Part shown: piece after piece, positions 14,880 through 54,665 of the stretch
Numbering within the stretch: position 1 is the stretch's first letter
Layout of the letters: each line of letters starts with the position of its first letter
Assembly: GCA_021018995.1 (NCBI GenBank)
Contig: CM037587.1
Coordinates: forward strand, 61,292,104-61,356,103
Direction of reading: 5' to 3'
Source: Chloranthus sessilifolius
Lineage: Eukaryota > Streptophyta > Magnoliopsida > Chloranthales > Chloranthaceae
Length of the DNA: 64,000 bases
Translations under genes and position numbers: made by a program
Notes under the pieces: model-generated
The model's input: the letters and a program-made list of their open reading frames with translations, nothing else
What the model was told of the DNA's origin: nothing
Database searches by the model: none

Positions 14880-15450
14880 TCGAGCTTTGATAGGTTCAGG
14901 GAACCTCTCGATAGGTTATGAGGCTTCTTGGTGCTTCATTCGATAGGTTGAAGTAGGCTTTCAACAGGTTGGATGGCTTCTCTATAGGATCTATTGCATT
15001 GTTCGACAGGATGACCTCAAAACCTCCCTACATCTTATATAACTCCAGTTGAGATTTTGACAAGTTCAGTACTGCTGTTTGACAGGTTGACTCAACCTCG
15101 CACGACTTCAGGTAAGTCCTCGCTAGGTTGGGTTTGTCTGCTCGCTAGGTTCAGGGGAACCTATCAACAGGTTCTTCTCTGCTATTCTGAACCTCACGAG
15201 ATCCCCTGCATCTCTAGGTAAGTCCTTAACAGGTTGCAACACACCACTCAACTGGTTCTTTCAACTTGTCGACCGCTTCATTTTTCTCTCTCAGAACCTA
15301 TCGATGAATTCTCATTCAGCTTTTAGGCATCTCGACATGATGCTTCCTTTGGTTTCCACTCCTCGACATGTTTTGGGAACTTGTCGATCTCTTCGTATTC
15401 AAGCATCCAAACCTATTGATAGGTTGAATTAACCTCTCGACAGGTTATAG
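14880..15450. repeat. TCGACAGGTT / AACCTGTCGA motif cluster, LTR of D
   Basis: More than a dozen copies of (T/C)CGA(C/T)AGGTT and its inverse, for example TTTGATAGGTTCAGGGAACC, TCTCGATAGGTT, TTCGATAGGTTGAA, TTTGACAGGTTGACTCAACC and ACCTCTCGACAGGTT. Copies are spaced about 20-50 bp, often as inverted pairs, and lie upstream of the TATA box. Confidence 0.85.
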
Positions 15451-17637: not shown

Positions 17638-20330
17638 CTAATCAAAATCTGAGTCAGAGCTTGATATGGTCATTGACCTAGTGCGGCCCTAGGTCATGGT
17701 GGGCTCCCTGATGGAAAGGGCTTTGGATTTTGAGGGACTAAGGGCAGAGTATAGGGAGAGGGTCTAAACTAACCTAGCCAGCATCTCAGATTTCTGCTTG
17801 TACATCTTGTAAAGGATATGAGGACCAGGGATATGAGGACCATTTTCCATAACTTCCACTCCTCTACCCTATGAGCTTCTAAAACAAGGTCAATCTCCTC
17901 CTGATGTGCTTACCGCAGTAACACCATGACTGCATCCACTAAAAATTGCACATCCTCTTTGACATATGGGCTGTTCTCAATGGCTTTGGTGACGGATGGC
18001 AGAGGTGAAAAGGTGTTGGTGCCATATGGGACAATGGCCCAATGGTGAGGGTCATACATGGAGGAGGGGGTGATGGGCAGCTTAGGAAGTGGTAGTGATG
18101 GTACAATGAGGGTCAATGGCAGCTCCTCTTCCACAACAATAGACTCAGGTGGGGTGGTGGGGTAGGTAAAAGGTAAAAAGGGTAAGTCAGCCTCCAAAGG
18201 ATCAGTTGGGGTTGTAGCATGGATAGGCAGAGCTTCTTCATCAAAATAAATTTGAGTTAAGGAGTCCCTGGTAGAAAGGGCAGGGATTAGTTCTGCTAAC
18301 TCAGTAGTGGAAACCACTACAAGAGGGGACAACTGAGGGGATGGAGGTGGAGTGGGTACTGAAATAGGTCTAGAAGTAGGAGTTATAAGAGGTTGACTGG
18401 TGGAGGTGGATGGGATTAGAGTGGAATGATTGGCCTGAAGGCAGGTGGCCATAGCAGACTGGTTGGTTTTGTTGGTTTGGAGCTGGGCTAGGATGGAGGT
18501 GAGAAGGGAAAGAATTTGGGTAAAGGCCTCAGGTAGGATTTGGGTTTGGGTAGAAGGGTGAATGGGTATAATGGGTTCTAAAGGAGATGTGGGAGCATGC
18601 TGGAAAAGTGAGGTGTGAGGAAGCTGGAATTGGGTAGGCTGTGGAGAGTCAGGTAAAGGGGAGTACTCTTGCCCAATGTTCTCCACAAGTGAGTCAATTA
18701 GGGATGAGTACTCCTCAGTGGTAAAATGCTCTAAATCTTGGGTATGTGGAGGTGACATAGAAGTAGTGAAGTCAATATCAGAGGGTAAGGAGGGTGGAGA
18801 GGAAGCGACTGGGTAAGCTGATGTCGATGGGGCTACTGGTTCAGGGCTTAATGATTTATCAGCAGGGATGGATGGATTAGCTGGAGGGGGTTTGCCTTGA
18901 TTTCTTTGGTAGGTGGTTGTGATGGGAAATGAAGGTAGGGTAGGAATTGGGTCTGTCGTAAGAGGAGTTGACATAGGGGTGATTGTGGTGATAATGGAAG
19001 GGATGACTGAGCTGCTGGGAGGTATGGGGACTGTAATGGAGGGTATGGAGGGTGATGAAATGGGAATGCTGGTAACATCAGAGCTGATAATAGGTAAAGG
19101 TACATCAGTGGAGGGAATCAGTGTGGGTGTAGAGGTCACAGGTGGAGGCTGTGAGCTAAGACCACCAGAGTTGAGTAGAGGCTCTGAGCTAGTAAATGTA
19201 GAGGTCCCAAATTGCAGCTGTGGGCGACAATGAGGAATCACAGTGTGATTCTTTGGTCACCGGAGGGGCTTCTTTGTCAGGACTCTCAACTGATTTCTTC
19301 TTGCTTTTCCCAATCAGGGTCCTACTAGTAGACCAGACCCTCTTCCCAAACACTTTTGGATTTAGTTTCTCCACTGGCTCATCCTTCTGTATCACAAATT
19401 TCCCTTTTCTTAGGAAATCAGTGATGAGTCTGCTATAGGGTAACCCTGGCAAGGCATGTCCTCTTTTGATTTTTTCATTCACATCTACCATGGCCTCAAA
19501 TATTAGTTGGGAGGCATTCAAGAACTGGCCCTTGAAGAAAAAGTAAAGGGCATCCACTATAGGGGTTCTTCTCTCTTGTAGATGTCCACTGACAAAAATG
19601 TTTTTCCTCAAGATTAAGTCTATGAAAAGCATGCTAGGGTGTAGATCTCTCCTCATTAATGATTCCCCAGAACCCACAATGCCTTGAGTCAGATGTCTGG
19701 CCATTACTCTAAAGGACACACTCTCAGGTGCTCCTAAACCATAAACTGAGTCAAAAACTGATGGGACCCCTAATGCCAACCCTATTTCACTGTAGGCCAC
19801 AACAAGCACCCAATTATCAATTAGGACCACAAGGGTAGGCTCTGTTGACCTTGGCTTCATCTTCTTCCTGATATTCTGATACCATAATTTGACAAGTCTA
19901 GGGTAGGATTTTTCTTGCAATGGGGTCAACAAAGGTGTCAGACCTGCCTTCACCAAATAGTCCAAGGTGCCCTTGCACTCCTCTACCTTAGAAAAATAAG
20001 GTAGGTAAAAAATTGTCTCAGGGATCAGGTCCTAAGGATCCACAAACTCATTGGGGGTAGCCAGGTTCACAGGTATCCCAGGTTCTGCCTCAGGGATAGG
20101 TTCAAGCACTGGCACATCCTCAACAATTTCTTTGGCAATTTCCTCAGTGATTTTGGCCTTCTTAGCTTTCTTTGCTTTCTTAGGTTTTTCCATGATGAGC
20201 TTCCTCTTAGCAGGTGGGGTCTCTTTGGGCTGGGTGGGTAGCCTACTAGATTTTCTGGTAGATTTCTGAACAGATTTGGAAGGGGCTCTGAACAGATAAG
20301 CTAAGGTATCCTCACGTCAGCCATTGGACA
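17638..20330 (-). pseudogene. ORF3 of element D (post-pol, Athila ORF/plant transposon protein-like)
   Basis: The likely start is an ATG near 20324 (MADV...), out of frame with the rest. A lysine-rich segment follows (EKPKKAKKAKKAK, near 20150). The globular part at 19220-19965 contains YPRLVKLWYQNI, LALGVPSVF, LLFIDLILRKNIF and SGHLQERRTPIVDA, closely matching F. Next is a long Pro/Ser/Thr-rich segment (about 17950-19200), then a broken tail ending SSDSDFD and a stop at 17638. This position is where Athila elements carry their so-called envelope-like ORF, but I see no signal peptide or convincing membrane segment. Function unknown. Confidence 0.65.
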
Positions 20331-21478
20331 AGCAATCCACACAATTAACTCTAAAAAATTCATAGTAATCTTCTTTGCCCAATCAAATTACAACACAAAC
20401 TAAAAATGGAAGTACAAAGCTTGGAAATCAGAGTGGAGGTTAAAGAGGAACTTACCCACAAAAAACCTAAGGTTTCTTAGAACTTGCTGTGCAGACACCA
20501 AACTGACAGAGACTAGGTGCAAAATGTAGCCCTTCTAAAATTGAAACACTTGGAACAATGGCAGGGTGAGTGGAGTTGGAACCAGTAAGGTGGAGGAGAG
20601 AGAACAAATTAGGAAATCGGGCATAAGAGGAATAGAGTTCTGAGCAAGAGATGCCGACTGGATAAAATGACCTCTCGACAAGTTTAGAATGAGTAAAAAG
20701 CTATTTTGATAGGTCAAGGAAGATTTCAATAGGTTGAAGCAACCTGTCGAAATGTTAAAGCAAGTGGATTGCCAGGTCTGTTAGGCTTAAGATCTCGATA
20801 GGTTCTTTCAACCTATCGACAGGTTACAGGCTTTAGAAAAAATCAAATCGATAGGTTCGACATCCTATCAACAAATACACGGCCTTCAAGGTCTAGCCTC
20901 TCGACAGGTTTAAAGTACTTAGCATTTAACATCTGGACATGTATTAGAACAAGTTGAGAACATAGCCTACAACTTCAGTACCTATTGACTTTCTCGCTCA
21001 ACATCTCGACAGGTTCATAGATCCTATCGAAATTCATATTTACACCTTCAGTACCTTTCGAACATCAATTCAAACCTCTCGACAGGTATCAGAACTTGTC
21101 GAAATACACATTGAGGACCTTTAGAACCTGTCGAAAATCAAGTTAGACCTCTCGACAGGTCTTTTTGACCAAACGTACCTGTTTCTCATCAGTTTCCTTG
21201 TCTCCATTCACATAGATTTTTCAATTATCCTTTGTTCCCATTGGATTTCTCATGCATTGGGGGCCTTCCTAACTTAATCAAGGTTGATTCAGTAACCTAA
21301 ATGAAACACTTAAATAAAAATGGCAGCATATATACAAGGCCAATAGTTTTAAAAATAGCAACAGACACAAAACCAACAGTTATGATCCATAGTATACATT
21401 GTTGAAAATCAGCCACACTGTGGAGGTTCTTAAAGGTGAATGGTCACCACAGGCTCTACTATATTTTCAACAAGGAGT
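20331..21478 (-). promoter_or_regulatory. Pol-ORF3 spacer of D with motif cluster
   Basis: No gene. From 20650 to 21180 it carries about a dozen TCGACAGGTT / AACCTGTCGA motifs, the same family as in D's LTR. Between the cluster and ORF3 the minus strand has a good splice-donor match (GTGGGTAAGTT near 20450) and an AAACCTTAGG leader-like stretch. This suggests ORF3 may come from its own promoter or a spliced RNA (inference). Confidence 0.55.
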
Positions 21479-26475: not shown

Positions 26476-26759
26476 TGTTAAGACTTGAAAAGTACCACTT
26501 TTCACCCCTTAACTTAATCTCTGTTGGACCCTTAGTCATTTAATAAAAGTGTTTTAAGCTTGTTCTACAGATAATAAACAACAGCTGCCAATAAACCCCT
26601 AACCATGCTAAGAAGCTCACTGTTGCCCCAGAACTACCTCAACAGAACGAAGGATGAACCCAGACAGAGAGTTGGCTGAAGCATAGGCACATCCAAGCAT
26701 AAATACATCAAGAAGAATGCCTCACACAAATGTCGCAGGGTTCAATTGAACAAGAGATA

Positions 26760-27240
26760 ATGCCTTCGCGCAGTTGTCACGAGCCCCTGGAGGAAGAACA
26801 ATAACTGGTTGCACAGTTTACGCGTCGTTCTCCCACGGTTTGGTGCCAGAAAGAATTGAAAAGTAGGCTTCGCGAGGCTCAGTATAAAGCATTTGCGTAG
26901 TCTTGCGCAGCTCAAAAGAAGAACCGTTAAGCTTCGCGCGACTGACTCAGGAGAGAGAGCTTCAGGTATTCCTGCACGTAGTTGTCGCGCAGTGGCCATG
27001 AGATACAGACCTTCTGAGAAATGCTCACGCGACCAGGAAACTCATGAACACTGCTTCTTCAAGAGGATCTCTCGCGAGATTCACCAAGGGACGAACCACG
27101 CGAGTAATCCCCGCGCCATTCAAAGCTGAAAGAGCAATCTTGTGATAGCCATTTGTATTTCGCGATGACTAAACTACCAATCTCGCGACTGCATGAATTT
27201 CAAGTCAGTTCAACCCCGCAACTCCAATTCTACCACGCGG
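26760..27240. repeat. TCGCG(A/C)G motif cluster, 5' LTR of F
   Basis: About a dozen CGCG-containing sites, for example TTCGCGCAGTTGTC, TTCGCGAGGCTC, TTCGCGCGACTG, TGTCGCGCAGTGG, TCTCGCGAGATTC, CACGCGAG and TCTCGCGACTG. The 3' LTR has the matching cluster (42120-42600), with many CG sites changed to CA or TG as expected from methylation-driven decay. It lies about 220-700 bp upstream of the TATA box. Confidence 0.85.
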
Positions 27241-27456
27241 AAAGATCTGAAATTGTTTCTACCCAGCGAGGATCGAATTCTAAACTTCTCCCTACTTCCA
27301 CAAGGGCAATTTAGGAATCTCTAGCAATTAGGGCACGCACTCCAATGCTTTAATCTCTGTGCACATGCCTCGAGGCATCCAAGGGACAAGAATGGGCTGC
27401 AATTACATCAATAAATTAGGGTTTTTCTAACCCTAATTGGAGGGCAAGCCGACTAC

Positions 27457-27464
27457 TATATAAG
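27457..27464 (+). promoter_or_regulatory. TATA box, 5' LTR of F
   Basis: TATATAAG followed by CCTAAGCC; identical in the 3' LTR. Confidence 0.75.
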
Positions 27465-28960
27465 CCTAAGCCTAGCTTAGGTTTGAGGATCGACCCTCTT
27501 TGGGACTTAACTTATGTGCTTCTTCTCCAAAAAACTAACTGTAGAATTACAGTAGGTTAAGGTTAGGGTTTAAGAGTTTTCTTATTTTTCCTTTTTCTCT
27601 CTCTCCATAGTCCAGCACTTGCTGGCTATGCCTTTTGTATGATTATCTGATATAGATTTTAATGGAGTTTTTTGTAATAGGATTTGTTGCATGTATGGGA
27701 TGTTGTTTTTATTGTGAGTTGTTCTGTACAAGGCTGCTGCCTTGAGATCCTCTATTGCTAAGTTGTTTTGTAAGCAATGGAGGATTGCTTCTAAAGTACT
27801 ATTTAGATCTAAGTGATCTGTGTGTCCAGGTTAGGCACTTTGCAGGCCTTCCCCCTCCACAGGACCCACTAAATCTGAATCCCCATGGGAACTTGTGCTT
27901 GTAGCCTTGGGAACATGGTGGCGACAGCAATGTTCTTGTTCTGTCTTAGCCATTTGTGAGGAGGATAACCTCTGTGGATAGTCTGTGACCATTCAAGTGG
28001 ACAGATTATAGCCCTAGGGTGAGGCCAAGTCATGGAACTAAGATAGATTTTTCTTCTCTGCACTTGTGCTTGTAGCCTTGTGAGAGATTGTGCAGTGGCA
28101 AACTCCCCTATAGTGAATAGATCCACCATCAGATTGTAGATCTAAGTGGGCCGTAGAGATTATAGACTTGTGACTGGATAACTGCAGTCTTTCTAAAGCA
28201 GTGAACAGCCTTGCTTAAAACCTAGTACTCAAACTCTTGCTGGTCCTGTGTGTCCAGGCTTGTGCACTTTGTAGGCCTAGCCCCACACGCAAAACTTTAG
28301 AGGATGAGGTTCCTATTGATTCTTGAGCTTGTAGCCTGGATGAAATAGTGCCTACAATGATAAACTTGTTCTGACCCATCTCTGGATTGTGGTTCCCCTA
28401 TTGGATAGTCTATGACCATTTAAGTACACAGGTTATAGCCTTAAGGGATTGGATCATGGCACAGGGGTGAGTTGGATACTTTCTCCTCTTTGGTGATAAT
28501 GTAACCCTTGGATAGGATTTCTATAGCGACAGATCTGAGTTTGAGTTACAAGACCCATCAGATCTGTACCTAATAAAATACTTTTCACCCTTTTATATTT
28601 ATTCTCTCACTCCACCATCCTTCTTAACCCTTTCTGTAATCTAGACGTTAGGATACCTTAGAATTTAGATTATAGTGACCCTAAATCCCCTTCCACTTAG
28701 GATTGCCAGATCTATAGCCAGATCTGGAGAGCCTACTAAGGATAGCTCCCTTGGAGCTTGAGATCAACTTCCCTGTAGGACAAACTCTTACTTATCAAAA
28801 CTTGCTACAACAGGCCCTTTATCTTGCAGGACTGTGCATATTTTTGGCTTGCTACTACGTAATCATCACTCTACCTTTCACTCATTTTTCATTTACCCCA
28901 TTCTTATCACTGTCTTCAATAATGTCAGTAGCAGGCACTTAAAATATCTCAACAAGTTTT

Positions 28961-28978
28961 TGGCGCCGCTGCCTGGGA
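28961..28978 (+). other. Primer-binding site of F (tRNA-Asp type)
   Basis: TGGCGCCGCTGCCTGGGA, six bases after the LTR. It resembles the Athila PBS complementary to the tRNA-Asp 3' end (TGGCGCCGTTGCCGGGGA from memory) with two mismatches. Confidence 0.85.
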
Positions 28979-29277
28979 TATTAATCTTTTAGTAGACTCT
29001 AGATTTTTGATTCTTTATTCTTTGGTAGCTGTACTTGTGAATAATTGATACTGCTAATTTACATTTGGAATTTTTCTTGCAGATCTAGACCGTAGCAGAG
29101 AAGGAGACTGGAATTGCATTGAGAGTCTAGCTACCTCTGTTTGCACTTCCCTAACCTTCAAAATCTCTGTTTATTTCTCCTTTGAAGATTCCATAAGCAG
29201 TTGATTAGGATAGTTGTAATTTTTGTTGTTAGTGCAATGTGTTTGCGAATAGTTTTCCCTGTTGTTGGTGTGTGTGT
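28979..29277 (+). other. Leader between PBS and gag of F
   Basis: Noncoding, T-rich, about 300 bp; no distinct signal seen apart from a TGTTGGTGTGTGTGT stretch just before the gag ATG. Confidence 0.6.
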
Positions 29278-31200
29278 ATGTTAGGAAGGAGATCTCTCAG
29301 TCCTACGTTAGAGCCTGCAAACCCTGAGATTGAAAGGGATAGAAGACTAAGAAGGCACAGACACCCCACAGTTGAGCCCCCTATTGAAATGGAGATAGCA
29401 GTCATGGGTGAAGAACAACCTAGAACATTGAAGGAATTGAATGCTCCAGATGATTATAATTCTCCTTTCAGCATTCAATTCCCAGATGTTCAAGGAAACT
29501 ACGAAATCAAAACTTCCATCATCCAAATGCTTCCCTCTTTCCATGGGCTTAGCAAGGAAGACCCTTACAAGAACATTGACCAGTTCTTGGCCTTGTGCAC
29601 GACATTTTCCATTACTGGTTTGGGACCAGAAGCCACTAGGCTAAGGCTCTTTCCTTTCTCCCTATAGGACAGGGCCAACACCTGGTTGTCTACTCTCCCA
29701 AACAACAGCATCATTTCTTGCAAAAACCTCAAGACAAGATTTCTGTCTAAATTTTTCCCAGAGACCAAAACCAGCCAGTTGAGGAAAAACATACTTGCTT
29801 TTGCCCAGTCCCCAACTGATGATTTTAATCAAGCCTGGGACAGAGTTAAAGAGATGCTCAAACAATGTCCCCACCATAAGATCCCTGACTGGCAGCTTGT
29901 CCAGAGCTTCTACAATGGGATTGATGAGAAGAGCAGAGACATGATAGATGCCTCTTGTGGTGGAATGTATATGCATAAAATAGCTGATGAGGCATGGGAC
30001 TTGTTCAAGGTCATAAGTGAAAATGATTTCCAGAAGATGTCCTCATGTAGAACGGTTCAAGAGCCTCCTCCCAAGTTGGGGGTGGCTGAAACTTCTAAAG
30101 GAAAGATGTATGAAGTTAGAGGAAATGATGACCTGAGAATACAGATGGCCAATCTTACTAAAAGATTTAATAAACTTTTGACTGTGGTGCAGCCAAGAAT
30201 GGCTGCACAAGTGATGGAGGCATGTCTGATATGCCAATCTCCATAGCACATAGTGGAAGAGTGCCCATCTGCAGGGCAATACCCTGAGTATGTAATGGAA
30301 CAGGCTGCTGCTACCCAATCTTTTGGACAGCAATAATCTGGTGGCTACAATAAACAACCATATGGATACCAGCACCAGAATGCTGGTTACCAATGGAGAG
30401 ACCACCCAAATTTGAGGTGGAGGCAAGACAATTATATTCAACCACAACAGATGTTGGCCTTACATCAAAGGCCACAACAACAGTTTAACCAGGGTTATGC
30501 CCAAAGGTCGAATTTCCAGCAGCAACAGCAACCCCAGCAACAAAATTAATTGATAGTCCCCCCACCTCAGCCTCGAAGTGCTTCTTTCGAGGACTAGGTT
30601 TTGGCCCAATTGCAAAGCCTTGGATCCTTGAATCAGACTGTGACTTCTCACAGTCAAAGCATTAAGAAAATAGAAGAGTAGCTTGGCCAAATAACCAATG
30701 CTCTGGCTAAAAGAGAGGTGGGCAGGTTGCCAAGCCAACCAGTAGCCAACCCAAAGGGCCAGTATTCCATCGACAAAGGCTCCTCAAATTTTGAGGGGGC
30801 TAATGCCATCACAGCCTTAAGGTCTGGCAAGCTGGTAGACAACCAGGTGGGAAAAGAATAAGGAGAGGTCATTCGCAAGGAAATGTCAAATGAAAATGAT
30901 AAAGACTTTGTTAGAGCACAGAGTCAAGAACTGCCTGCTACCCTTCAACAAGGGAAAAATAAAGAGGTTGCAGATGAGCCTCATCAGGAGATAAAAATAG
31001 AAAAAAGATAAAAAGCAAAAGTTTAATCATAGGCTTGCAGCTGGGGAACCAGCAGTACCTCAGCTGCCTTTTCCTCAAGCTTTGAGTGGCCCTGCCCCTT
31101 TTCATAAGGGTCAGGCACAGATCGAGGAAATGATGGAGACCTTTAAGCAGGTCAAGATAAATTTACCCCTGCTTGATGCAATCTGACAGGTCCTAGCCTA
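29278..31200 (+). pseudogene. Gag of element F
   Basis: The ATG at 29278 is supported by E, whose gag starts with the same MLGRRSL. Capsid-like blocks: PRTLKELNAPDDYNSPFSIQ, IIQMLPSFHGLSKEDPYKNI, LRLFPFSL, WDRVKEML, FYNGIDEKSRDMIDASCGG. A zinc knuckle (CLIC-QSP-x-HIVEEC) near 30220-30262 has a TAG in its x position (30244-30246). Another TAG is at 29665-29667, where relatives have lysine. A Gln-rich tail follows to 30549, then the linker with LAKREVGRLPSQPV-like sequence. Builds the particle and binds RNA in intact relatives. Confidence 0.88.
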
Positions 31201-31252
31201 TGCGAAGTTTCTGAAAGACCTTTGTACTCAAAAAAGGAATGCCAGAGACCAT

Positions 31253-31795
31253 TTGTCTAAAAAGGTCTTTGCAACTAATATAGTTAATTCTGTATTAACC
31301 ATGACAATACCTGAGAATTTGCAAGACCCGGGGATACGCACTATTCCCTGTATTATTGGTGACCACACAATTGGAAGGGCCCTTTTGGACCTTGGAGCCA
31401 GTGTTAACCTGCTGCCATACAGTGTATATCAGCAGTTAGGTTTGGGGGAGTTGAAGCCCACCCCCATTGTTCTATTGATGGCTGATAGGTCTGAGAGGAG
31501 ACCCATGAGAGTGGTTGAGGATGTCCTAGTGGGGGTAAACAAGTTCTTCTACCCTGCAGACTTCCTTGTTTTGGACATGAGTTGTAACAAGAGTACATCC
31601 CCTATACCTGTCATTCTGGGTAGACCATTTTTGGCCACTGCCAATGTATGCATTCAATGCAGGTCTGGGATCATGGAGGTCACTTTCGGTCATATGAAAG
31701 TTGAGCTTAATGTGTACAACGGTGTAAAGTACCCTCAGCTGAACAATGAGGAATGCTTTGCAGTGGATGTACTAGAAGAAATTGTTGAAGAATAA
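31253..31795 (+). pseudogene. Aspartic protease of F
   Basis: An uninterrupted stretch of about 180 residues: IPENLQDPGIRTIPCII, ALLDLGASVNLLPYSVYQQL, VLVGVNKFFYPADFLVLDM, IPVILGRPFLATANVCI. The active site DLGAS is intact for this lineage. It is in a different frame from gag, so at least one frameshift separates them. It ends at a TAA before the RT linker. Confidence 0.9.
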
Positions 31796-33146
31796 CTGCC
31801 CACTCTGCTAGAGTGGAGCAACATTGTCATTGATTTAACTGAAGTTTGGAACATGGTGGAGGAAGGAAGCCTAGCTTTAATGCCAGAACACATACCCCTA
31901 GTGAGGTCTTCTGTGGGCTTAGTGCAGCATTCCAATTGAAAACCTACATTGCTGCCCCTTCCTCCAACCAACAATACACTAATCCTGCCATCCATCAAAC
32001 ACGCCCCTGATCTGGAGCTCAAGAAGCTGCCAGAGACATTGAAATATTCTTTCCTCGAGAAAGAAGAGAAACTTCCTGTAATTATCTCCTCTTCTCTAAC
32101 CAGTGAGCAAGAGGAGGAATTGCTAACAGTTCTAAGGAAGCACAAGAAAGCAATTGGCTGGACCATTCGATCCGGGAGGATTGATGCATCAATGCATGCA
32201 TAGGATTCATCTAGAGGAGGGCTCAACACCCTCCGAGAAATGCGAGAAATTGAATCCTCACATGCAAAAGTGGTTCTGAAGAAATCATTAAATTCTTTGG
32301 ATCTTTGGGGTAATTTACCCCGTCTCTGATTCTGAATAGGTGGCACCAATCTAGGTGGTACCCAAGAAGTCTGGCATCACAGTGATAACAACCGACTCTG
32401 GAGAGTTGAAACCAGCCAGGGAGACCACTGGCTGGAGAGTTTACATCGATTATCAAAAACTCAACTCCAAGACCAGAAAAGACTATTTCCCTCTCCCTTT
32501 TATTGATCAAATTTTGGATAAGTTGGCTGGGAAAGCTTTTCACTGTTTTCTTGATGGGTACTCAGGGTACAACCAGATCCCTGTGCACCCCCTTGATCAA
32601 GAGAAAACTATTTTTACTTATCCTTTCAGCACCTTTGCTTACAGAAGGATGACTTTTGGACTGTGTAATGCCCCAGCCACCTTTCAGATGTGTATGTATA
32701 CCATCTTTGCTGATATGATTGACAAATTCTTGGAAATTTTCATGGATGATTTTTCAGTTTATGGGGATAGCCTTGACCAATGTCTACAACACCTCCATTT
32801 CCTATAAAGATCTGAAGAGACCAATTTGGTCTTAAGTTGGGAGAAGAGCCACTTCATGGTAACACAAGGAATTGGGTTGGGCCATGTGGTCTCTAAAGAT
32901 GGAATTGAGGTAGACAAGGCCAAAGTTGACCTCATTGCAAATTTGCCCCCTTCAAGAATAGTCAAGCAAATTAGATCCTTCCTTGGGCATGCTGGATTCT
33001 ACAGGAGGTTTATCAATGACTTCAGCAAAATTGCTAAACCATTGTGCCACCTGCTCTGCCAGGATGTGCCCTTTGGTTGTTCTGCTGAATGTCTTGAGGC
33101 TTTTGAAAGGTTAAAAATCTGCCTCACCTCTGCTCCTGTACTATAA
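31796..33146 (+). pseudogene. PR-RT linker and reverse transcriptase of F
   Basis: The linker (31949-32203) ends SEQEEELLTVLRKHKKAIG. After frameshifts the RT runs 32355-33146: VPKKSGITVITTD, GWRVYIDYQKLNSKTRKDYF, LPFIDQILDKLAGKAFHCFL, FGLCNAPATFQMCMYTIF, FMDDFSVYGDS (catalytic aspartates 32745-32750), FLGHAGFYRRFINDF. Stops at 32805 and 33144. The key residues survive, unlike in D. Confidence 0.9.
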
Positions 33147-33690
33147 AGTTCTGACTATACCTTGCCCTTTGAGTTGATGTGTGATGCATCTGACTTGGCA
33201 ATAGGTGCTGTCTTGGGCCAGAGAAAGGATAAGCTGCCTGTGGTCATTGCATATCTCAGCAAATCACTTGCTGAAGCCCAGCTAAACTACACAACCACTG
33301 AGAAAGAGCTTCTGGCAGTGGTTTTTGCTGTGGACAAGTTTAGACCTTACCTACTTGGGTATAAAATTGTCATCTTCACTGACCACTCAGTATTAAAGTT
33401 CCTACTGTCCAAGAAGGATGCAAAGCCTAGATTGAATAGATGGATACTCCTGTTGCAGGAGTTTGACATTGAAATCAAGGACAAGAAGGGTGTAGAAAAT
33501 GTGGTGGCTGGCCACTTGTCCATAATTATATTGGAAAAAAGTGTTGATGACCTTGCTACAAATGATGTCTTCCCGGATGAGCAGCTGTTTGCCATCCAGT
33601 CTTTAGTTCTTTGGTATGCACATATTGTCAATTATCTAGTTAAAGGCAAGATCCCTTCTCATTGGACAAAAATGGATAAAGACCTTTTTT
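33147..33690 (+). pseudogene. RNase H of F
   Basis: [78 protein letters not shown]. The domain is largely open from 33162. The usual VVADHLSR is VVAGHLSI here, losing one conserved aspartate near the end. Confidence 0.9.
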
Positions 33691-34858
33691 CTCACAGGTC
33701 AAATTCTTCTTCTGGGAAGAACCTTGCTTGTACAAGTATTGTGCAGACCAAATCATTCGGAAATGTGTCCCTAAAAGTGATGTCCCCAGTATTCTGACCA
33801 TGTGCCATGAAAATGCTTGTGGGGGTCACTTTAGTGGGAGAAAAATAGCTGACAAAGTATTGCAGTGTGGGTTCTATTGGCCTTCTCTTTTTAGAGATGC
33901 CAATACACACTGCAAGACCAGTGAAAGATGTCAGAAACTAGGAGGGCTATCTAAAAGAAATTCACTGCCTTTACAGCCATCGTTGTTGTAGAATTGTTTG
34001 ATGTGTGGGGTATTGACTTTATGGGCCCCTTTCCTCCTTCAAATGGTTTTCATTTCATCTTAGTGGCAGTAGACTATGTTTCCAAATGGGTAGAAGCCAT
34101 TCCCACAAGAACTAATGATAATCAAGTTGTCCTCAAGTTCATAAAGTAGAATATCTTCTCCAGATTTGGTACACCTATAGCCATTATCAGTGATGGGGGG
34201 AGCCATTTTGGTAACAGAAATTTCGAGAGCTTGCTTAAGAAATATTCTGTCACCCATAGGATTGCTACTCCCTACCACCCACAAACCAGTGGGCAAGTTG
34301 AAATTTTAAATAGGAAAATCAAGCATGTCCTTGAGAAGACTATGAAAACTGATATGAAGGATTGAACTGACAAGCTTAATGATGCATCATGGGCTTATAG
34401 GATCGCCCCATTTAGGCGGTCTATGGCAAGGCTGTCATCTCAGTGGAGTTAGAACACAGGGGCCTATTGGGCCATCAAACATTTAAATCTAGATCTAACT
34501 TTGCTGGTCTTCACAGTGTCGTTGCGGAACTAAGGATGGATGCGTATGCCAATGCCGGGATCTACAAGGAAAGGTCCAAAACTTTCTTTGACAAAGGGTC
34601 ATTGAGAAAGAGTTTCATTCTTTGGTGATAAGGTTTGGTTGTTTAACTCCAAACTTAAATTTTTTCAACAAATTGAAATCCAGATGGGAAGGTCCTTACA
34701 TTGTCATGCATGTTTCCCCATCTGGTGCTGTGGAAATCAAGGATCCCAAGTCTGGGAGAACCATGAAAGTGAATGGTCAGAGGCTTAAGACTTGTTTTGA
34801 AAAACCTGTTGAACTCATGGACACCATTCACCTTCAAGAAGATCCTTCCTCAAATTGA
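33691..34858 (+). pseudogene. Integrase of F
   Basis: Zinc domain MCHENACGGHF ... HCKTSERC (33728-33930). Core: [16 protein letters not shown] (first Asp, near 34010), [10 protein letters not shown] (second Asp, near 34190) and TSGQVEILN (Glu, near 34300), so the DDE triad is intact. A TAG interrupts near 34147. After frameshifts around 34400-34620 the C-terminal part is WEGPYIVMHVSPSGAVEI to EDPSSN and a stop at 34858. Confidence 0.9.
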
Positions 34859-35953
34859 TCCACAGGTGTGTCATTACTGTATCATATATATGTTGTTTTT
34901 GGTTGATTTATCTTGCTTTCTTTTGTTTCTATTCTTTAGGATTTGTTCGTGGTCTTATCTGAATCTGGACCAATCTATTTTGAACTTTTGATGCATGGTT
35001 TTATTCTTACTATTTTTCAATTGATAGCTTCTATTGCATGCCTAATGTGGGAGGTTGTTTTTAAATTGATGATTGAGTTTACATGTGTCTAGAGATAGCC
35101 ATGGGAGAGAGTCATGCCTAGGATCCAACCACAGGCAAACAGGCAAAAGGGGCAGAACAGAGAGCACATGCTCTCTGTTTTATTCCTTACTGTCGCTAGG
35201 TCCAAAATGAAAGTCTGGGAGACTATCGCGAGATTCAAAAGCTATCGCGAGGTTAACAAGGAAGCCTGGGAGCATGTCGCGCAGTTTGCATAGAAACATT
35301 CAATGACTATCGCGAGATTCATGTGTACCTGACAACCTCTCGCGCGGTCCACATCGAGCTATTCAATAGTTATCATGAGATTATCAGGTTGTCACGAGGT
35401 TCACAAGGTAAACTGGGAGACTCTCGCGTAATTCAATAGAAATACTTCATTTACTGTCGCGAGATTCTAAGTCTGTCACAAGATTCAATATGAACCTCAG
35501 AGCTTTTCACGCAATCCAAAAGAGGCTTAGGAGCCGCTCGCACAATTCACATGAATTAATCTCACTCTATCGTGCGCTCCAAGGATAACTTGAGAGATTG
35601 TCGCGCAATCCAGATTTAATCAACACTTTCGCTAGGTTCATTTCCAAACCCGCGACCAGATGTTCCAAAGCACGTCGAGCTTCGCGATAAGTATTTCAAC
35701 CCCGCGCTTTGTCCCTTTTTCATTATTTTCTTCCTTCTTCCCTTTGCGAAACCCTAGCTTCTGGAGCTCTCCCCTCTCCCCTCCAGCATCACTCCTATAG
35801 CTCATCATTCACTTCACAATTCTATAGAGTTGTTCCTAACATCACCCCCATCCATTGCCCTCTGCTCAGAGATCTTGAGGTGTCTTATGCGTCAAATCAA
35901 ATTAAACCCTAGATTTCAGCCTCCGTTTCTCATATTATAGGATAGAGTTAGAT
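34859..35953 (+). promoter_or_regulatory. Pol-ORF3 spacer of F
   Basis: No gene. The first 240 bp are T-rich. A dense TCGCGAG motif cluster (35214-35700) is followed by a stretch resembling a plant 5' leader: pyrimidine-rich, with GCGAAACCCTAGC (35745-35757) and AAACCCTAG again near 35904, then CATATTATAG (splice-acceptor-like) 13 bp before the ORF3 ATG. This arrangement suggests internal transcription or splicing for ORF3 (inference). Confidence 0.5.
35214..35700. repeat. TCGCGAGATT motif cluster before ORF3 of F
   Basis: About 18 copies in fewer than 500 bp, such as CTATCGCGAGATTC (three near-identical), GCTATCGCGAGGTT, ATGTCGCGCAG, CTCTCGCGCGGTCC, TTGTCACGAGGTTC, CTGTCGCGAGATTC and TTGTCGCGCAATCC. 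Spacing is typically 20-35 bp. TCGCGA is itself a palindrome. The family is the same as in F's LTRs. Confidence 0.9.
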
Positions 35954-38900
35954 ATGACTCCAAAATCTGCACAGAAGAGAAAAGGGAAGGATAAGGACCC
36001 TGCAGAGACCACCCTTAAAATGGCCAAGACTTCAAAGTCCCCCAAAAAAGGAACGAAAGTGGTTGAGGAGGCGATGGTACCAACTACTAAGTTCTCTACT
36101 CCTTTTGAGCTCATGGAGTCAATTCCATTGGAGCCTGAAACAGCCTTTGATGTACCATTTTTTGAGAAAGAACTCTCTCTGCCCCTGTAGTATAATTTAT
36201 GAACAAAGCAGGCCTGATGCCATTGATGAGAGGAATTCCAGCTCTAGCCTACCCCAGGCTAGTGCAGCTATTTTATAGCACATCAAGGTCAAGAAGGACA
36301 ATGATGGACAAGGGTGCTTGCTGGTGCTAATTGCCGACTTTGATATGTTAGTGGGCCCCAAGATGATCGCTAAAGTGTTGGGCATCCCAGCAGCATTCAA
36401 TCCTAGCTGTGGATATGGCCCCCCTCTGAGTGCATCGATTGATACAATTGCACTAGCCCAAACTAGAGGACTAAAAGCCATCGGGGACTCAATTAGAAGG
36501 AGGGAACTCGAACCTGAACTGCTGTTCATTGACCAAGTCCTACGGAAGAACATATATTGCTCAGGACATCAGCAAGAGAGGAGAACCCCCATTGCGGATG
36601 CTGTCTACTCCTACCACATGGGCCATGGCTTCCATGCAGCCTGGCTAATTTTTGAGGCTATGAAAGACAAGTGGAGAAGTTAGGGTCAAACAAGAAGCCT
36701 CACACTCTACCCTATGCAAGAATCATTACCTTGCTGCTGATCAAGAGGGGATACAAGATAGGACAGACTGAGCAGACCACCACCCTTACCCGTACTACCT
36801 TTGCCAAGAGGCAATGGGGAATCAGCAGGAGCTTGATGGGGGGCCAGAAAAAGAAGAAAGCTGAGGCTCAGGTCCTGCCCAAGCAAACAGAAGCGGCAGC
36901 CGGATCAGGGTCTACCCCTGCTACAAAGGAGGTGCCTCCATAGATTATCACTTCCATCGCTGCAGCAACACCTATTACCCCTGCATCCACCACCCCTCTT
37001 GCATCCATCTCTCACCCCCCTCTATTTCCATTCTCCATGCCCACTACCCCTTCACCTGTGCTTGGTCCATGGGAGGACTCACCATCCCCTACCTTACCTC
37101 AGTACACAGCCACAATTCCCCCCTTATCTCCACCTAAGCCTACCAGCCCCCCACTCATCTCCTACAAAAAATGAAAGACCACTGAGACCATCCCAACCAT
37201 CTCCCAGACACCACCCTCAATCCCCTCTATCCCCATTGACACACCCCACCTTGAAGAAACTACCACCCCAGCCATATTTACTACATCCCCTCTCCCAGAC
37301 ATTGACTTAACCCTTAACACATCCATAGGCTTCCAAGCCTTCATCTCTACATTCCTTGAAACAATGCCTGCCTACTACACCCCTCTGCCAGACTCCCCAA
37401 CTACCTCCCAGCACCACTCCCCAGAACTCCACTCTTCCCCTCCCTCCACTTTCCATCATGCTCCTTCCTCCCCTTTCCAACCAATACCCTCTTCTTCTCA
37501 AACCCAACCTCCTAGCTTTGACACACTAACCCTCATCATACCCCTTATCCAAGATATACAAGCCCAGTTATCCACCAATAGCTAAAAATAGGACCAGATG
37601 CAGGCTGAACTCACCTCCATCCAATCCACCCTACACACCTTAACCACTCCACCCATCCCTCCACCATCCACTTCACCCCCCTGGTCCTGTCCACTGACAG
37701 ACAGACACAAATAGACTTCCCTCCTAACTCATTACCCCCGCCACCATCACCATTAACTCTTACCCACCCATTTCCTTTAATCCCTTTCACAATTCCCATT
37801 TTCCATCTCCCATCACCCCCAACTCCTATTGAGCCTACACTCTTTTCCTTTCCCCCTATACCCTCCATCCCCCCTTTTATCCTACCCCCCCCCACCTTCT
37901 CAACCAAATCTATACAAATCGACCCAGAACCTGACCCGATTCCCCCACCACTTGACTTCCCTATTATCTTCCCCCTTCTCCCCAGACCAAGCACACTTTC
38001 CTCCTTCCACCTCCCATCTGCCCATAGCTCTAAAATATCATTTTTACAGCCCTCCCTACCTCACTATCCTCCATCACATGAGGGATAATGCATACCTGAG
38101 GAAGGATGCCCTGAGGGGCATGGCCAAGTTCGCCAATCAATTGAGACCCCCCTGCTGGAGCAGATTGATAAAATGATGGAGGAATACCGACAGCAGCTTC
38201 TGGGCATCTCATTGGGGTGGATAAACATTTTGGATGCCTACCAAAAGGACAAGGCTACAGCTACTTATCATCAGATAAATTGGGAGTATGAGAAATCCAA
38301 TGCTGCTGCAACGAATGCCCGGGCAAGAATGCTTGAAAAATGACTTAACAATGCACAGGAAATCTAAAAAAATATAAAAGGAGGTTCATGAGACTGACAT
38401 CCTCAAATATCAAATCAAAATAGCCTCATTGGAATCCGCATTGGCTGCTACCCGAAATGAACCTTACCAGCCGACCCCATCTTTGTTCACATGCCTGAGC
38501 CTAAGCCAACTACTACTCCAGCTCCACCTGCCCAGTCTGAGGAGGCAACACTTAAGCCCCAGCAAGACAAAGGAAAAGCTCCTGCTTCACCTCCTACGGC
38601 GCAGCCTCAACTACTGAGCAACCTACTCCTACCATGGCCTCTGTTGAACCACCACAGAAGCAAACTTATCCTCAGAGGAGGAAAGTCACTGCCAAGAGGT
38701 CTGCTCCCAAAACTGTCCCTTTAAAATTTGGCAAAGAGCCTGCTGCCCAGTCTGAAGAGGCATAGTCCCCTGCCCAACTTGAGTCCACTGGAAAAGGAAA
38801 ATCCCCAGTGGTCCCCACTGAGGAACCTAAAGCTAAAGAAAAAGGAAAATCTGCAGTGGTCCCCACTGCAGAAGCAGAAGCCAAAGGCAAAGGCAAAGAA

Positions 38901-39139
38901 AAATCCCCTGCCACCCCCCTGCTAAGCGCAAAGGAAAAGCCCCTCAAGAACCCAAGGAACCAAAGGCTCCCAAGCCACCAAAAGTAAGGGTGAGGGCACC
39001 TAAAGCTCCAACTACAGCAAAAACAACAGCCGAAAAGAAAAAGGAGAGGGAGGAAAAGAAGAAACAGGATAGAGCTTCCCTTAAGGCACAGGCTAAAAAG
39101 ATGGGTTGGGATTTCCTTACAGATTCAGATTCAGATTAG
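35954..39139 (+). pseudogene. ORF3 of element F (post-pol protein, Lys-rich tail)
   Basis: ATG at 35954: a basic start (MTPKSAQKRKGKDKD, SPKKGTKVVEE). The globular part (36318-36890) contains LVGPKMIAKVLGIPAAF, LLFIDQVLRKNIYCSGH and QQERRTPIADAVYSY, matching D. A Pro/Ser/Thr-rich region (about 36940-38050) follows, then a helical segment (DKMMEEYRQQLLG, near 38170) and a Lys/Pro/Glu-rich tail with a KGKS-x-VVPT repeat (38791-38910). The frame ends DFLTDSDSD and a stop at 39137-39139. At least four frameshifts or stops. It occupies the Athila envelope-like slot, but no membrane segment or signal peptide is visible; it looks nuclear or nucleic-acid binding (inference). Confidence 0.65.
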
Positions 39140-39782
39140 ATCCTAGCATCTAGATTGTATATTAAGCTTTTCTTCTTGTAATTACATTTGTAACTATTTT
39201 TATTCCACTTTAATAGAATTTTTAGTTTTTGTCTATTGCTCTGTTCTATGTGCTTCTTTCTGTTTGTTTGCTACTTTTGATTTTGTTCTTTTTGCCATTC
39301 ATGGGAGATGAGTTGAGGGAGGCTATGTTTCTTTGCAATAGTAATCCGTGTGGAGGACAAATGGAGATGGTGGTTATATAAATTTGTGCAAATACCGGCC
39401 TCAGGGAGTTCAATGGCTTCTTCTTCAAATTGATGAACCATGTTAGGCTACCTCGCGAAGATCCCCAGCTCAGCTGCACGAGAAATGTCCTTTACTCATC
39501 ATTGATTGCTCTTCGTGAGGATCCCCGCGCGATACACTTACCTCTTTAAATACCATTCCTATCTTTGGACAATCAGTTAATGCTCCTTCTCTTTTCCAAA
39601 GAGCCAGTTGTGTGTTTCTTCTTTCCCCACACCACACTCATTTATTGCCAAGTTTGAAAAGGGGTGCAATTTCAATTCCGCCGATTCATGTTCCCTCGTC
39701 GCTCTCTTTTAAACCGGCCATCTGTCCCTTTTCATCTCATCCCTCCTCTTCTACCCCTAGAAGTCCATACCTCCTCACACAA
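39140..39782 (+). promoter_or_regulatory. Spacer after ORF3 with motifs and a TATA-like site
   Basis: The first ~110 bp resemble D's sequence after ORF3; most of the rest is absent from D. It contains CCTCGCGAAGATCCCC (39451-39466) and CTTCGTGAGGATCCCCGCGCG (39513-39533, one base changed from the other), followed by CTTTAAATACC (39543-39553) and a pyrimidine-rich leader before a small ORF. The order motif, TATA-like box, leader, ATG resembles a promoter. Confidence 0.4.
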
Positions 39783-40088
39783 ATGGCGGATGACACCCCC
39801 TTCGGGTTCCCAATCAAATTCTACCCCATCTGGGGAGATCCCCCACCGCCAAAGGAGCCGGAACCCTTGCAATTTCTATGGGATGAATTTGACGAGGTCC
39901 AGCGGATCCTCGCCAAGGAGGAAAAGAAAAAGAGAAAAAGAGAGAAGAGAGAAAAGAAGAAGAAGAAAACAATGGCAACACCTGCATCTCCCCCTCCATC
40001 TTCCTCAAACCCTCCCCCGCTACACATTGACCCCCCCATTTTGTCTTTTCTTTTTCCATCTTTTTGTCATATTTTCTTTTTATTTTAA
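39783..40088 (+). CDS. Small ORF with basic patch in F (hypothetical)
   Basis: 101 codons from an ATG in good context (CAAATGGCGG): MADDTPFGFPIKFYPIWGDP, then acidic EFDEVQRILAKEE, a strongly basic run of Lys/Arg/Glu (residues about 46-61), a Pro/Ser stretch, and a hydrophobic end. The frame is open 170 bp further upstream but without homologous support. It lies in a segment that D lacks. It may be a captured or degenerate fragment rather than a gene; I recognise no family. Confidence 0.3.
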   Translation: MADDTPFGFPIKFYPIWGDPPPPKEPEPLQFLWDEFDEVQRILAKEEKKKRKREKREKKKKKTMATPASPPPSSSNPPPLHIDPPILSFLFPSFCHIFFLF

Positions 40089-41835: not shown

Positions 41836-44322
41836 TGTTAAGACCTGAAAAGTACCACTTTTCACCCCTTAACTTAATCTCTATTGGACCCTTAGTTATT
41901 TAATAAAAGTGTGTTAAGCCTGTTCTGCAGATAATAAATAGCAGCTGCCAATAAACCCCTAACCATGCCAAGAAGCTTACTATTTCCCTAGAACTACCTC
42001 AGCAGAACAAAGGATGAACCCAGATAGAGAGTTGGCTGAAACATAGGCACATCCAAGTAGAAATACATCAAGAAGAATGCCTCGCACAAATGTCACAGGG
42101 TTCAATTGAATCAGAGATAATGCCTTCGCGCAGTTGTCGCGAGCCCTTGGAGGAAGCACAACAACTGGTCGCACAGTTTGCGTGCCGTTCTTGTGCAGTT
42201 TGGTGCCAAAAAGAATTGAAAAATAGGCTTCGCGGGGTCCTTGCGAGGCTCAGTCTAAAGCATTCATGCAGTCTCACGCAGCTAAAAAGAAGAACCGTTA
42301 AGGTTAGCGCGACTCACTCAGGAGAGAGAGCTTCAGGTATTCCTGCACGCAGCTGTCACATAGTGGCCGCGAGATACAGACCTTCTGAGAAATGCTCACA
42401 CGACCTAGAAACTCATGAACACTGCTTCTTCGAGAGGATCTCTCACGAGATTCACCAAGGGACGAACCGCGCGAGCAATCCCCGCACCATTCAAAGCTGA
42501 AAGAGCAATCTTGCGATAGCCATTTGTATTTCGCGATGACTAAACTACTAATCCTGTGACAGCATGAATTTCAAGTCAGTTCAACTCCGCGACGCCAATT
42601 CTACCATGCGAAAAGATCTGAAATCATTTCTACCCAGTGAGGATCAAATTCTAAACTTCTCCCCACTTCTGCAAGGGCAATCTGAGAATCTTCAACAATT
42701 AGGGCACGCACTCCAATGCTTCAATCTTCATGCACATGCCTCGAGGCATCCAAGGGACAAGAATGAGCCGCAATTACATTAATAAATTAGGGTTTTCCTA
42801 ACCCTAATTGGAGGGGAAGCCGACTGCTATATAAGCCTAAGCCTAGCTTAGGTTTGAGGATCGACCCTCTTTGGGACTTAACTTCTGTGCTTCTCCAAAA
42901 AACCAACTGTAGAATTATAGTAGGTTAAGGTTAGGGTTTAGGAGTTTTCTTATTTTTCCTTTTTCTCTCTGTCCATAATCCAGCACTAGCTGGCTATGCC
43001 TTTTGTATGATTATCTGGTATAGATTTTAATGGAGTTTTTTGTGATAGGATATGTTGCATGTATGAGATGTTGTTTTTGTTGTGAGTTGTTCTGTACAAG
43101 GCTGCTACCTTGAGATCCTCTATTGCTAAGTTGTTTTGTAAGCAATGGAGGATTGCTTCTAAAGTACTATTTAGATCTAAGTGATCTGTGTGTCCAAGTT
43201 AGGCACTTTGCAGTCCTTGCCCCACCACAGGACCCAATAAATTGGAATCCCCATGGGAACTCGTGCTTGTAGCCTTGGGAACATAGTTGCGGCAGCAATG
43301 CTCTTATTATGTCTTAGCCATTTGTGAGGAGGATAACCTCTGTAGATAGTCTGTGACCATTCAAGTGGATAGATTATAGCCCTAGGGTGAGGCCAAGTCA
43401 TGGAACTAAGACAGATTCTTCTTCTCTGCACTTATGCTTGTAGCCTTGTGAGAGATTGTGCAGTGGCAGACTCCCCTATAGTGAATAGATCCACCATCAG
43501 ATTGCAGATCTGAGTTGGCCATAGAGATTGTAGGCTTGTGACTGGGTCACTGCAGTCTTTCTAAAGCAGTGAACAACCATGCTTAAAAGCTAGTACTCAA
43601 ACTCTTGCTGGTCCTGTGTGTCCAGGCTTGTGCACTTTGTAGGCCTAGCCCCACACACAGAACTTTAGAGGATGAGGTTCCTATGGATTCTTGAGCTTGT
43701 AGCCTGGATGAAGTAGTGCCTACAATGATAAACTTATTCTGACCCATCTCTGGATTGTGGTTCCCCTATTGGATAGTCTGTGACCATTTAAGTGGACAGG
43801 TTATAGCCTTAAGGGATTGGATCATGGCACAGGGGTGAGTTGGATTCTTTCTCCTCTTTGGTGATAATGTAACCATTGGATAGGATTTTTATAGCAACAG
43901 ATCTGAGTCTGAGTTACAAGACCCATCAAATCTGTACCTAATAACTTACTTCTCACCCTTTTATATTTATTTTCTCACTCCTCCATCATTCTTAACCCTT
44001 TCTGTAATCTAGACATTATGATACCTTAGAATTTAGATTATAGTGACCATAAATCTCCTTCCACTTAGGATTGCCAGATCTGTAGCCAGATCTGGAGAGC
44101 CTACTGAGGATAGCTCCCTTGGAGCTTGAGATCAACTTCCCTATGGGACAAACTCTTACTTATCAAAACTTGCTACTACAGGCCCTGTATCTTGCAGGAC
44201 TGTGCATATTTTAGGCTTGCTTCTCCGTAATCATCACTCTACCTTTCACTCATTTTTCATTTACTCCATTCTTATCACTGTCTTCAATAAAGTCAGTAGC
44301 AAGCACTTAAAATTTCTCAACA
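41836..44322 (+). repeat. 3' LTR of F (2,487 bp)
   Basis: TGTTAAGACCTG ... TTTCTCAACA, aligned with the 5' LTR along its length. TATATAAG at 42828-42835. Several CGCG sites of the 5' LTR are CACG or TGCG here. Confidence 0.95.
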
Positions 44323-54455: not shown

Positions 54456-54665
54456 CCTGCCGCAACCTATCAAATGGTTGTTTGAACTTGTCGAGAACTT
54501 GTCGAGAGGTTCTGATGCTAAAAATAAACCTATCGAGCATCCTGTCGAATGGTTGAATGAACCTGTCGAGATCCTGTCGAATGCACACCTGAAGCCCATC
54601 CAACCTATCGAACAGATGCATAAACCTGTCGAGATTGAAGTTCTGAAGCTCCAACCTATCGAGGC
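54456..54665. repeat. ACCTGTCGA motif cluster, 5' LTR of H
   Basis: About ten copies of (A/T)CCT(A/G)TCGA(G/A), for example GAACCTGTCGAGATCC, AACCTATCGAACAG, AAACCTATCGAGC and CTGTCGAATGG. The 3' LTR repeats it at 60060-60260. The long frames on both strands here (for example 54451-54696) are produced by the repeated motif. Confidence 0.85.

What the first reader, a model, noticed from the sequence alone, without database searches (positions are those of the whole stretch)
26760..39535. F repeats one CGCG motif family in front of every transcription unit
In F, TCGCG(A/C)G-type motifs cluster in U3 upstream of the LTR TATA box (26760-27240), directly before ORF3 (35214-35700, about 18 copies), and again as two sites before the small ORF, just upstream of TTTAAATA (39451-39533). 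The intervening coding DNA is not enriched by eye. Recurrence before separate ORFs argues for a cis-regulatory module that spread within the element. One model is a self-encoded DNA-binding factor (ORF3 is Lys-rich) acting on its own motif, comparable in logic to VANC proteins and their short motifs in VANDAL elements. That model is inference; the motif distribution is seen directly.
Basis: partly seen in the sequence, partly recalled or inferred. Interest (0 to 1): 0.88.

Follow-up and report, generated by a model that had tools for sequence, protein, structure and literature searches.

The report
Retroelement families with private promoter motifs
Several families of jumping genes in this plant each carry their own short DNA word, repeated many times in front of two of their promoter regions, which looks like a private binding site for a regulator that the element may make itself.

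Summary
In element F (Athila-like Ty3/gypsy, LTRs 26476-28954 and 41836-44322), CGCG occurs at 23.2, 22.2, 29.7 and 16.0 per kb in four clusters (5' U3, before ORF3, before the small ORF, 3' U3) and nowhere else in F. The finding is larger than reported. A related element in the window, D, has no CGCG but another word, the palindrome AACCTNTCGANAGGTT, at the same two places: U3 and directly before ORF3. Short element E, with no long ORF, carries D's word in its U3s only. Genome-wide D's palindrome occurs 7,059 times, its reversed control 21. D's ORF3 matches PF20167 weakly; strong PF20167 loci in this genome include Sirevirus-like Ty1/copia elements with a third palindrome in the same place. 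The architecture is published for Sireviruses (Bousios 2010); my searches found no report in Athila. Best reading: family-specific binding sites shared by the LTR promoter and an internal ORF3 promoter, possibly bound by the ORF3 protein, in the manner of foamy-virus Tas. Binding, promoter activity and the factor's identity are inferred, not shown.

The parts
26476..28954 (+). F 5' LTR; TATATAA at 27457
   Evidence: self-BLAST 92.2% to 41836-44322; termini TG..CA and flanking CTTGT; TATA
26767..27239 (+). F U3 cluster, 13 CGCG
28960..28977 (+). F primer-binding-site-like sequence
   Evidence: tRNA assignment is recalled, not tested
35227..35706 (+). F pre-ORF3 cluster, 12 CGCG, core TCGCG(A/C)G
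35954..39139 (+). F ORF3, broken by stops and frame changes
   Evidence: pieces align to D ORF3
39454..39531 (+). F third, small cluster (3 CGCG) before TTTAAATA and the small ORF
39783..40088 (+). F small ORF (Lys-rich stretch)
   Evidence: no Pfam family over its cut-off (Med19 14.8 bits, cut-off 25, is the only listed match)
41836..44322 (+). F 3' LTR; U3 cluster 42127-42591, 9 CGCG
14908..15444 (-). D 3' LTR U3 cluster, 5 CCTRTCGA; TATA at about 14606
20743..21159 (-). D pre-ORF3 cluster, 11 CCTRTCGA
17910..20031 (-). D ORF3, in pieces in two frames; piece 19192-20031 matches PF20167 at 25.5 bits (cut-off 45)
50767..51459 (-). D-type LTR fragment with U3 cluster, 14 CCTRTCGA, 2 CGCG
53691..56113 (+). 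E 5' LTR, U3 cluster 54529-54662; TATA at about 54976
59303..61704 (+). E 3' LTR, U3 cluster 60093-60257; E interior has 0 CCTRTCGA, and no ORF of 150 aa or more is listed in E

Best explanation
The clusters are family-specific arrays of binding sites for one sequence-specific factor. The factor acts at two promoters of the element: the LTR promoter, which makes genomic and gag-pol RNA, and an internal promoter just upstream of ORF3. The factor is most likely the ORF3 protein itself or a complex containing it, forming a self-encoded feedback or anti-silencing loop. Short derivatives such as E keep the U3 sites and would use the factor supplied by D-type elements. Shown: position, enrichment, family-matched words, absence from coding DNA, and association with ORF3. 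Inferred: binding, promoter activity, and the identity and sign of the factor.
For:: site density in clusters against zero elsewhere, and a near-clean split (CCTRTCGA 0 in F's four clusters; CGCG 0 in D and E clusters, 2 in the D-type LTR fragment); a model trained only on D's pre-ORF3 region gives 49 hits in the window: 13 in training, 31 in the D-type and E U3 clusters, 5 elsewhere, 0 in F's clusters. AACCTNTCGANAGGTT 7,059 against control 21; D arms on F's core, 1; three loci with ORF3 only 72-73% identical to D keep 8, 9 and 8 CCTRTCGA upstream; in nine of ten pairs of these clusters motif positions are 0.77-0.87 identical and spacers 0.52-0.76; the closest pair, D-G, shows no excess (0.88-0.89 against 0.88); of 20 PF20167 loci 15 carry a third word upstream of the domain, among them all 9 with a recognisable copia RNase H end. 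E has no internal sites.
Against: No binding, transcript-start or methylation data. No DNA-binding domain was recognised in ORF3; PDB sequence search gave nothing and structure prediction was off. D's PF20167 match is below the curated cut-off, three F pieces do not match it, and D against one Sirevirus-type ORF is marginal: BLAST E 0.002 for that single pair at 24% identity without composition correction, phmmer 1.4 bits, hhalign probability 1.6%. F's U3 sites share the CGCG core with the pre-ORF3 sites but not the ATTC flank, and the full F palindrome is rare genome-wide (6 against 2). Models trained on E's U3 or the D-type LTR also give 3 hits each in F's pre-ORF3 cluster. 5 of 20 PF20167 loci lack the third word's array. 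A host factor with a relaxed site would give similar arrays. Window DNA without a shown ORF3 (1-4080) also carries a palindrome cluster.
Confidence: 0.5

Rival explanations
1. The same arrays and the same two promoters, but read by a host transcription factor; families differ because their sites drifted.
For: CGCG-type boxes are bound by host CAMTA factors in plants (recalled). TCGCGMG and TCGANAGG share a TCG half. DNA with no shown ORF3 also carries a palindrome cluster. E keeps sites without ORF3.
Against: Words are kept distinct within one genome. The internal cluster accompanies ORF3 and is absent from E's interior. The third word, CGGACGTCCG, is unlike the others but sits at the same place relative to a PF20167 ORF.
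Confidence: 0.3
2. The pre-ORF3 clusters are not a promoter but serve another step, such as methylation, small-RNA targeting, RNA structure or splicing to ORF3.
For: CpG observed/expected is 1.0-1.26 in clusters against 0.11-0.23 elsewhere in F. PMC2829016 passages note predicted splice acceptors for Athila env. A pyrimidine-rich tract follows F's cluster (seen by eye). The 3' U3 cluster is in the genomic RNA's 3' end, so an RNA role cannot be excluded by position.
Against: The U3 cluster lies about 220-320 bp upstream of a TATA box in F, D and E, the usual place of promoter sites, and the same word recurs upstream of ORF3.
Confidence: 0.15
3. Functionless tandem-repeat growth in non-coding DNA.
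For: D and G show motif pairs at 73-bp steps (positions).
Against: The same word at two unlinked places without colinear spacers; better conservation than spacers between subfamilies despite CpG decay; genome-wide perfect palindromes.
Confidence: 0.05

Closest known systems
Sirevirus repeated motifs (RM), Bousios et al. 2010, PMC2829016
   Same: Symmetric, family-specific CpG words in the LTR upstream of TATA and upstream of the env-like ORF; the RM-bearing elements without that ORF have no linker copies (passages read).
   Different: Sireviruses are Ty1/copia; F and D have ORF3 after a gypsy-type RT/RNase H. The F and D words are TCG-based rather than CGG-CCG. F's word is one-sided outside its core. 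F adds a third, weaker cluster.
VANC / VANDAL anti-silencing (PMC5735166)
   Same: Short family-specific motifs in non-coding parts, tandemly repeated and diverging between relatives, read by an element-encoded protein (passages read).
   Different: DNA transposons; ORF3 was not compared with VANC by any tool; binding and demethylation are untested here.
Foamy-virus Tas/Bel1 with internal promoter (PMC517496)
   Same: Logic: an element-encoded factor acting at both LTR and internal promoters (abstract start in a listing).
   Different: Animal retroviruses; no homology tested or implied.
Sunflower Athila 3' aORF with Transposase_32 (PMC11728184)
   Same: 3' sense aORF of an Athila element with partial PF20167 similarity and a predicted nuclear signal (passages read).
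   Different: No upstream motif array in the passages seen.
Grande accessory gene with its own promoter (Gomez-Orte 2013, title seen as a reference in PMC11963269)
   Same: 3'-internal gene for a nuclear protein with its own promoter.
   Different: Another lineage (maize Grande); paper not read.

Membership tests
Ty3/gypsy LTR element (F) | Paired LTRs with TG..CA, target duplication, PBS-like site, RT_RNaseH domain | tested here: met
   that PF17917/PF17919 point to gypsy is recalled
Athila lineage (F, D) | RT phylogeny within Athila | not tested
   no tree built; assignment rests on PBS, 3' ORF and recall
Sirevirus RM architecture (works like) | Same word in LTR U3 and upstream of the 3' ORF | tested here: met
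   D. F: core only
Sirevirus RM architecture (works like) | Elements lacking the ORF lack internal copies | tested here: met
   E only, n = 1
Sirevirus (member) | Ty1/copia pol, multiple AGGGGGAG PPT | tested here: not met
   F and D carry PF17917/PF17919 (D also PF00078), not copia-type by recall; AGGGGGAG was not searched for in F or D
Sirevirus (the PF20167 loci elsewhere) | Copia RNase H end upstream; multiple AGGGGGAG PPT; RM in LTR | tested here: inconclusive
   RNase H end in 9 of 20 loci. Of the two loci extended by 10 kb, L032+L049 has AGGGGGAG three times and one CGGACGTCCG downstream; L031+L050 has no AGGGGGAG and two CGGACGTCCG downstream; LTR ends not delimited
PF20167 (Transposase_32) | Score over curated cut-off of 45 bits | tested here: not met
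   D piece 25.5 bits, E 1.4e-5; three F ORF3 pieces no match at E 0.1; D and F pieces align at 34-50% identity
VANC-type system (works like) | Encoded protein binds its own family's motif | not testable with these tools
   needs EMSA or DAP-seq
Foamy-virus Tas/IP (works like) | Internal promoter activity | not testable with these tools
   needs transcript-start data

The most novel reading that the evidence does not exclude
ORF3/PF20167 proteins are a family of self-encoded, sequence-specific regulators shared by Ty3/gypsy (Athila-like) and Ty1/copia (Sirevirus-like) elements of plants. Each element family evolves its own word at the LTR and internal promoters, so that one genome hosts several orthogonal protein-DNA codes, with short elements borrowing a code in trans.
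Probability: 0.4. Interest if true: 0.9.

Novelty: new variant of a known kind. Interest (0 to 1): 0.74.

Why it matters
The function of the env-like or accessory ORF of plant retroelements is a long-standing open question. If its protein reads the element's own word at both promoters, these ORFs would be regulators rather than envelopes, and their word-protein pairs could be tested directly. It would also tie two superfamilies together through one accessory module and explain how short non-coding derivatives are switched on with their parents.

Tried and rejected
Segmental duplication of U3 to the ORF3 region: rejected, no colinearity (E U3 against D pre-ORF3 is the nearest, 9 of 100). A fully palindromic F motif: suggested by the 20-copy model but not borne out genome-wide (6 against 2), so dropped. 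Relatives outside this genome: none for D's ORF3 piece in the protein database at E 0.001 or, for six peptide patterns, in viral contigs; no PDB sequence at E 1. Setting the pattern places against ORF3 hits: only the first places, all on C1 below 86 Mb, were listed and no listed D ORF3 hit lies there, so no test. Loci L029 and L034 (PF20167 without a cluster) show, read by eye, copia integrase/RT-like or gag-like sequence close upstream and look like internal deletions; L037, L044 and L046 also lack the CGGACG array, so 15 of 20 loci have 5 or more CGGACG. Genome counts for TGAATNTCGANATTCA, TATCGCGAGATTC, CACGGACGTCCGTG and GCGCAACTANTAGTTGCGC did not complete.

Literature searches: 20 of 24 listed; 15 of 24; 15 of 176; 12 of 20; 6 of 6; 14 of 14; 12 of 41. 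No title or abstract start listed reports this architecture in Athila. I read passages of PMC2829016, PMC12844716, PMC11728184, PMC11963269, PMC5735166, PMC1142308 and PMC7828637, and the first of three parts of PMC7264820. PMC517496: only the abstract start in a listing.
Full report
ANATOMY. F is an LTR element with LTRs 26476-28954 and 41836-44322 (92.2% identical), the flanking duplication CTTGT and TG..CA ends, a PBS-like site at 28960 and an RT_RNaseH domain. It sits in the gag part of D, a related element on the minus strand; D's pol region 21427-25216 is 68% identical to F's. Element E (LTRs 53691-56113 and 59303-61704, 93%) has a short interior and no listed ORF of 150 aa or more. I call the lineage Athila-like from PBS, 3' ORF and general knowledge; no RT tree was built.

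THE OBSERVATION. F's clusters hold 37 of the 55 CGCG in the window: 13 (5' U3), 12 (pre-ORF3), 3 (pre-small-ORF) and 9 (3' U3); none lies elsewhere in F. CpG observed/expected is 1.0-1.26 in clusters and 0.11-0.23 in the other F segments counted. In 1000 dinucleotide shuffles of F's interior the best 500-bp stretch never exceeded 2 CGCG (observed 12). Shuffling inside each cluster, which keeps its CpG content, reaches the observed count in 0, 0, 11 and 0 of 1000. The sites read TCGCG(A/C)G; before ORF3 they extend to T-N-TCGCG-M-N-ATTC. The LTR pair shows CpG decay: 87 of 105 substitutions over 1,142 aligned positions of the U3 side are transitions, and CGCG is present in both at 4 of 17 places.

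A SECOND WORD IN THE SAME PLACES. D has no CGCG. On its own strand it has CCTRTCGA 11 times in 511 bp before ORF3, 5 times in 631 bp of its 3' U3, and 0 times in gag-pol (5,172 bp), ORF3 (2,901 bp), linker (1,776 bp) or the next 1,550 bp of the LTR side. A D-type LTR fragment has 14 and E's two U3s have 7 and 6; together these are all 43 in the window, against 1.0 on average in 50 shuffles (maximum 5). Motif models, each thresholded at roughly 6 chance hits per window: trained on D's pre-ORF3 region, 49 hits: 13 in training, 8 D U3, 11 D-type LTR, 7 and 5 E U3s, 5 elsewhere, none in F's clusters. Trained on the D-type LTR, 66: 20 training, 14 D U3, 11 D pre-ORF3, 9 and 7 E U3s, 3 F pre-ORF3, 2 elsewhere. 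Trained on E's 5' U3, 77: 11 training, 9 E 3' U3, 15 D U3, 13 D pre-ORF3, 15 D-type LTR, 3 F pre-ORF3, 11 elsewhere. F's models are weaker. F pre-ORF3: 37 hits, 16 training, 4 and 4 in F's U3s, 8 in D/E clusters, 5 elsewhere. F 5' U3: 46, 14 training, 9 F 3' U3, 8 pre-ORF3, 2 small, 4 D/E, 9 elsewhere. The clusters were delimited by eye before modelling.

NOT A COPIED SEGMENT. Beyond the motif, U3 and pre-ORF3 clusters do not align better than block-permuted versions (28 and 19 of 100 reach the score for F and D; E U3 against D pre-ORF3, 9 of 100). In F, D and E the U3 cluster ends about 220-320 bp upstream of a TATA box.

COPIES IN THE GENOME. The window lies in a 2.17-Gb unnamed assembly; 2,428 candidates for F's pre-ORF3 region were seen and 40 scored. 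I fetched 20 of these. All 20 have 7-13 CGCG there (they were selected by this region); 15 with a U3 match over 400 bp have 6-16; the ORF3 domain stretch, found in 19, has 0 in 18 and 1 in one; the small-ORF region, matched over 261 bp in 12, has CGCG in 10. The 10-kb loci hold 14-38 CGCG in all, and those outside the named stretches (12 in L009, for instance) were not assigned. In 20 copies the pre-ORF3 model finds about 16 sites per copy; in 15 U3s only the core is shared (matrix correlation 0.80 over 11 positions). The palindrome AACCTNTCGANAGGTT occurs 7,059 times, its reversed control 21. D's arms on F's core occur once (control 0); this hybrid is two bases longer, so a lower count is expected by chance alone. 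The full F palindrome occurs 6 times (control 2): outside its core F's site is a one-sided word. Element G, running off the right end of the window, repeats D's arrangement with 13 CCTRTCGA at L051:1677-2158. Three loci whose ORF3 is only 72-73% identical to D keep 8, 9 and 8. In nine of the ten pairs of these clusters motif positions are more alike than spacers; the closest pair, D-G, shows no difference. The aligner may favour motifs, so this is supporting evidence only.

THE ORF3 LINK ACROSS SUPERFAMILIES. D's ORF3 piece matches PF20167 at 25.5 bits, below the cut-off of 45; three F pieces do not match it, but F pieces align to D's at 34-50% identity. PF20167 has 13,856 candidate places in this genome, of which 150 were scored and listed as over the cut-off. 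Of 20 fetched, 15 have 5 or more CGGACG, clustered upstream of the domain; 9 of the 20 also show the end of a copia RNase H, and all 9 have the cluster. Two were extended by 10 kb: one has three AGGGGGAG tracts, the Sirevirus PPT of PMC2829016 (passages), and one downstream CGGACGTCCG; the other has no AGGGGGAG and two downstream CGGACGTCCG. So the LTR side of this third family is only lightly tested. D against one such ORF gives a colinear BLAST match over about 190 residues at 24% (E 0.002 for one pair, no composition correction), but phmmer gives 1.4 bits and hhalign a probability of 1.6%. Three different words thus sit at the same place before ORFs that one Pfam profile joins, in two superfamilies; the relation is remote and rests mainly on that profile.

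MECHANISM. I take the clusters to be binding-site arrays shared by the LTR promoter and an internal ORF3 promoter. The factor is most likely ORF3 or a partner of it. For: the internal array accompanies ORF3 and is missing from ORF3-less E, while E's U3s keep D's word. Against: no recognised DNA-binding domain, no binding data, and a palindrome cluster also in window DNA where no ORF3 was shown. My rough odds: regulatory array 0.85, internal promoter 0.6, self-encoded factor 0.4-0.45.

KNOWN AND NEW. Bousios et al. 2010 described this architecture for Sireviruses, including its presence upstream of the env-like gene and an internal-promoter suggestion. New here as far as my searches go: the Ty3/gypsy case, two families with distinct matched words in one window, a short element carrying a matching word, and the PF20167-type ORF as the common neighbour. 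In some searches no listed title or abstract start reported it for Athila; those searches cover open-licence PMC papers and most lists were capped.

Noticed in passing
window 1290-1400 and 3420-3680: DNA of a probable minus-strand element (PBS-like TGGCGACTCTG near 2400, TATA near 3133) carries another palindrome, CTGGCGCAACTAATAGTTGCGCCAG, at two places: GCGCAACTA/TAGTTGCGC 9 in window against 0.07 in 30 shuffles. Tat/Ogre-like by recall.
   Followed up: partly
window 46543-46615: DNA right of F has CTTGCCG/CGGCAAG 4 times (shuffle mean 2.6), arranged as palindromes; weak evidence.
   Followed up: partly
window 45086-45305: Tandem repeat of about 90 bp, 88% identical.
   Followed up: no
window 47411-47577 (minus): A PPT-like site and two similar LTR-start-like stretches about 120 bp apart (72%), with a TCGCGA at 47076; another Athila-like 3' end.
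   Followed up: no
L037:545-665: A PF20167 locus with a variant word, ACGGAAGTCCGT, suggesting word drift among these families.
   Followed up: no
L051:6440-7113: Diverged F-like LTR right of the window keeps a CGCG cluster.
   Followed up: no
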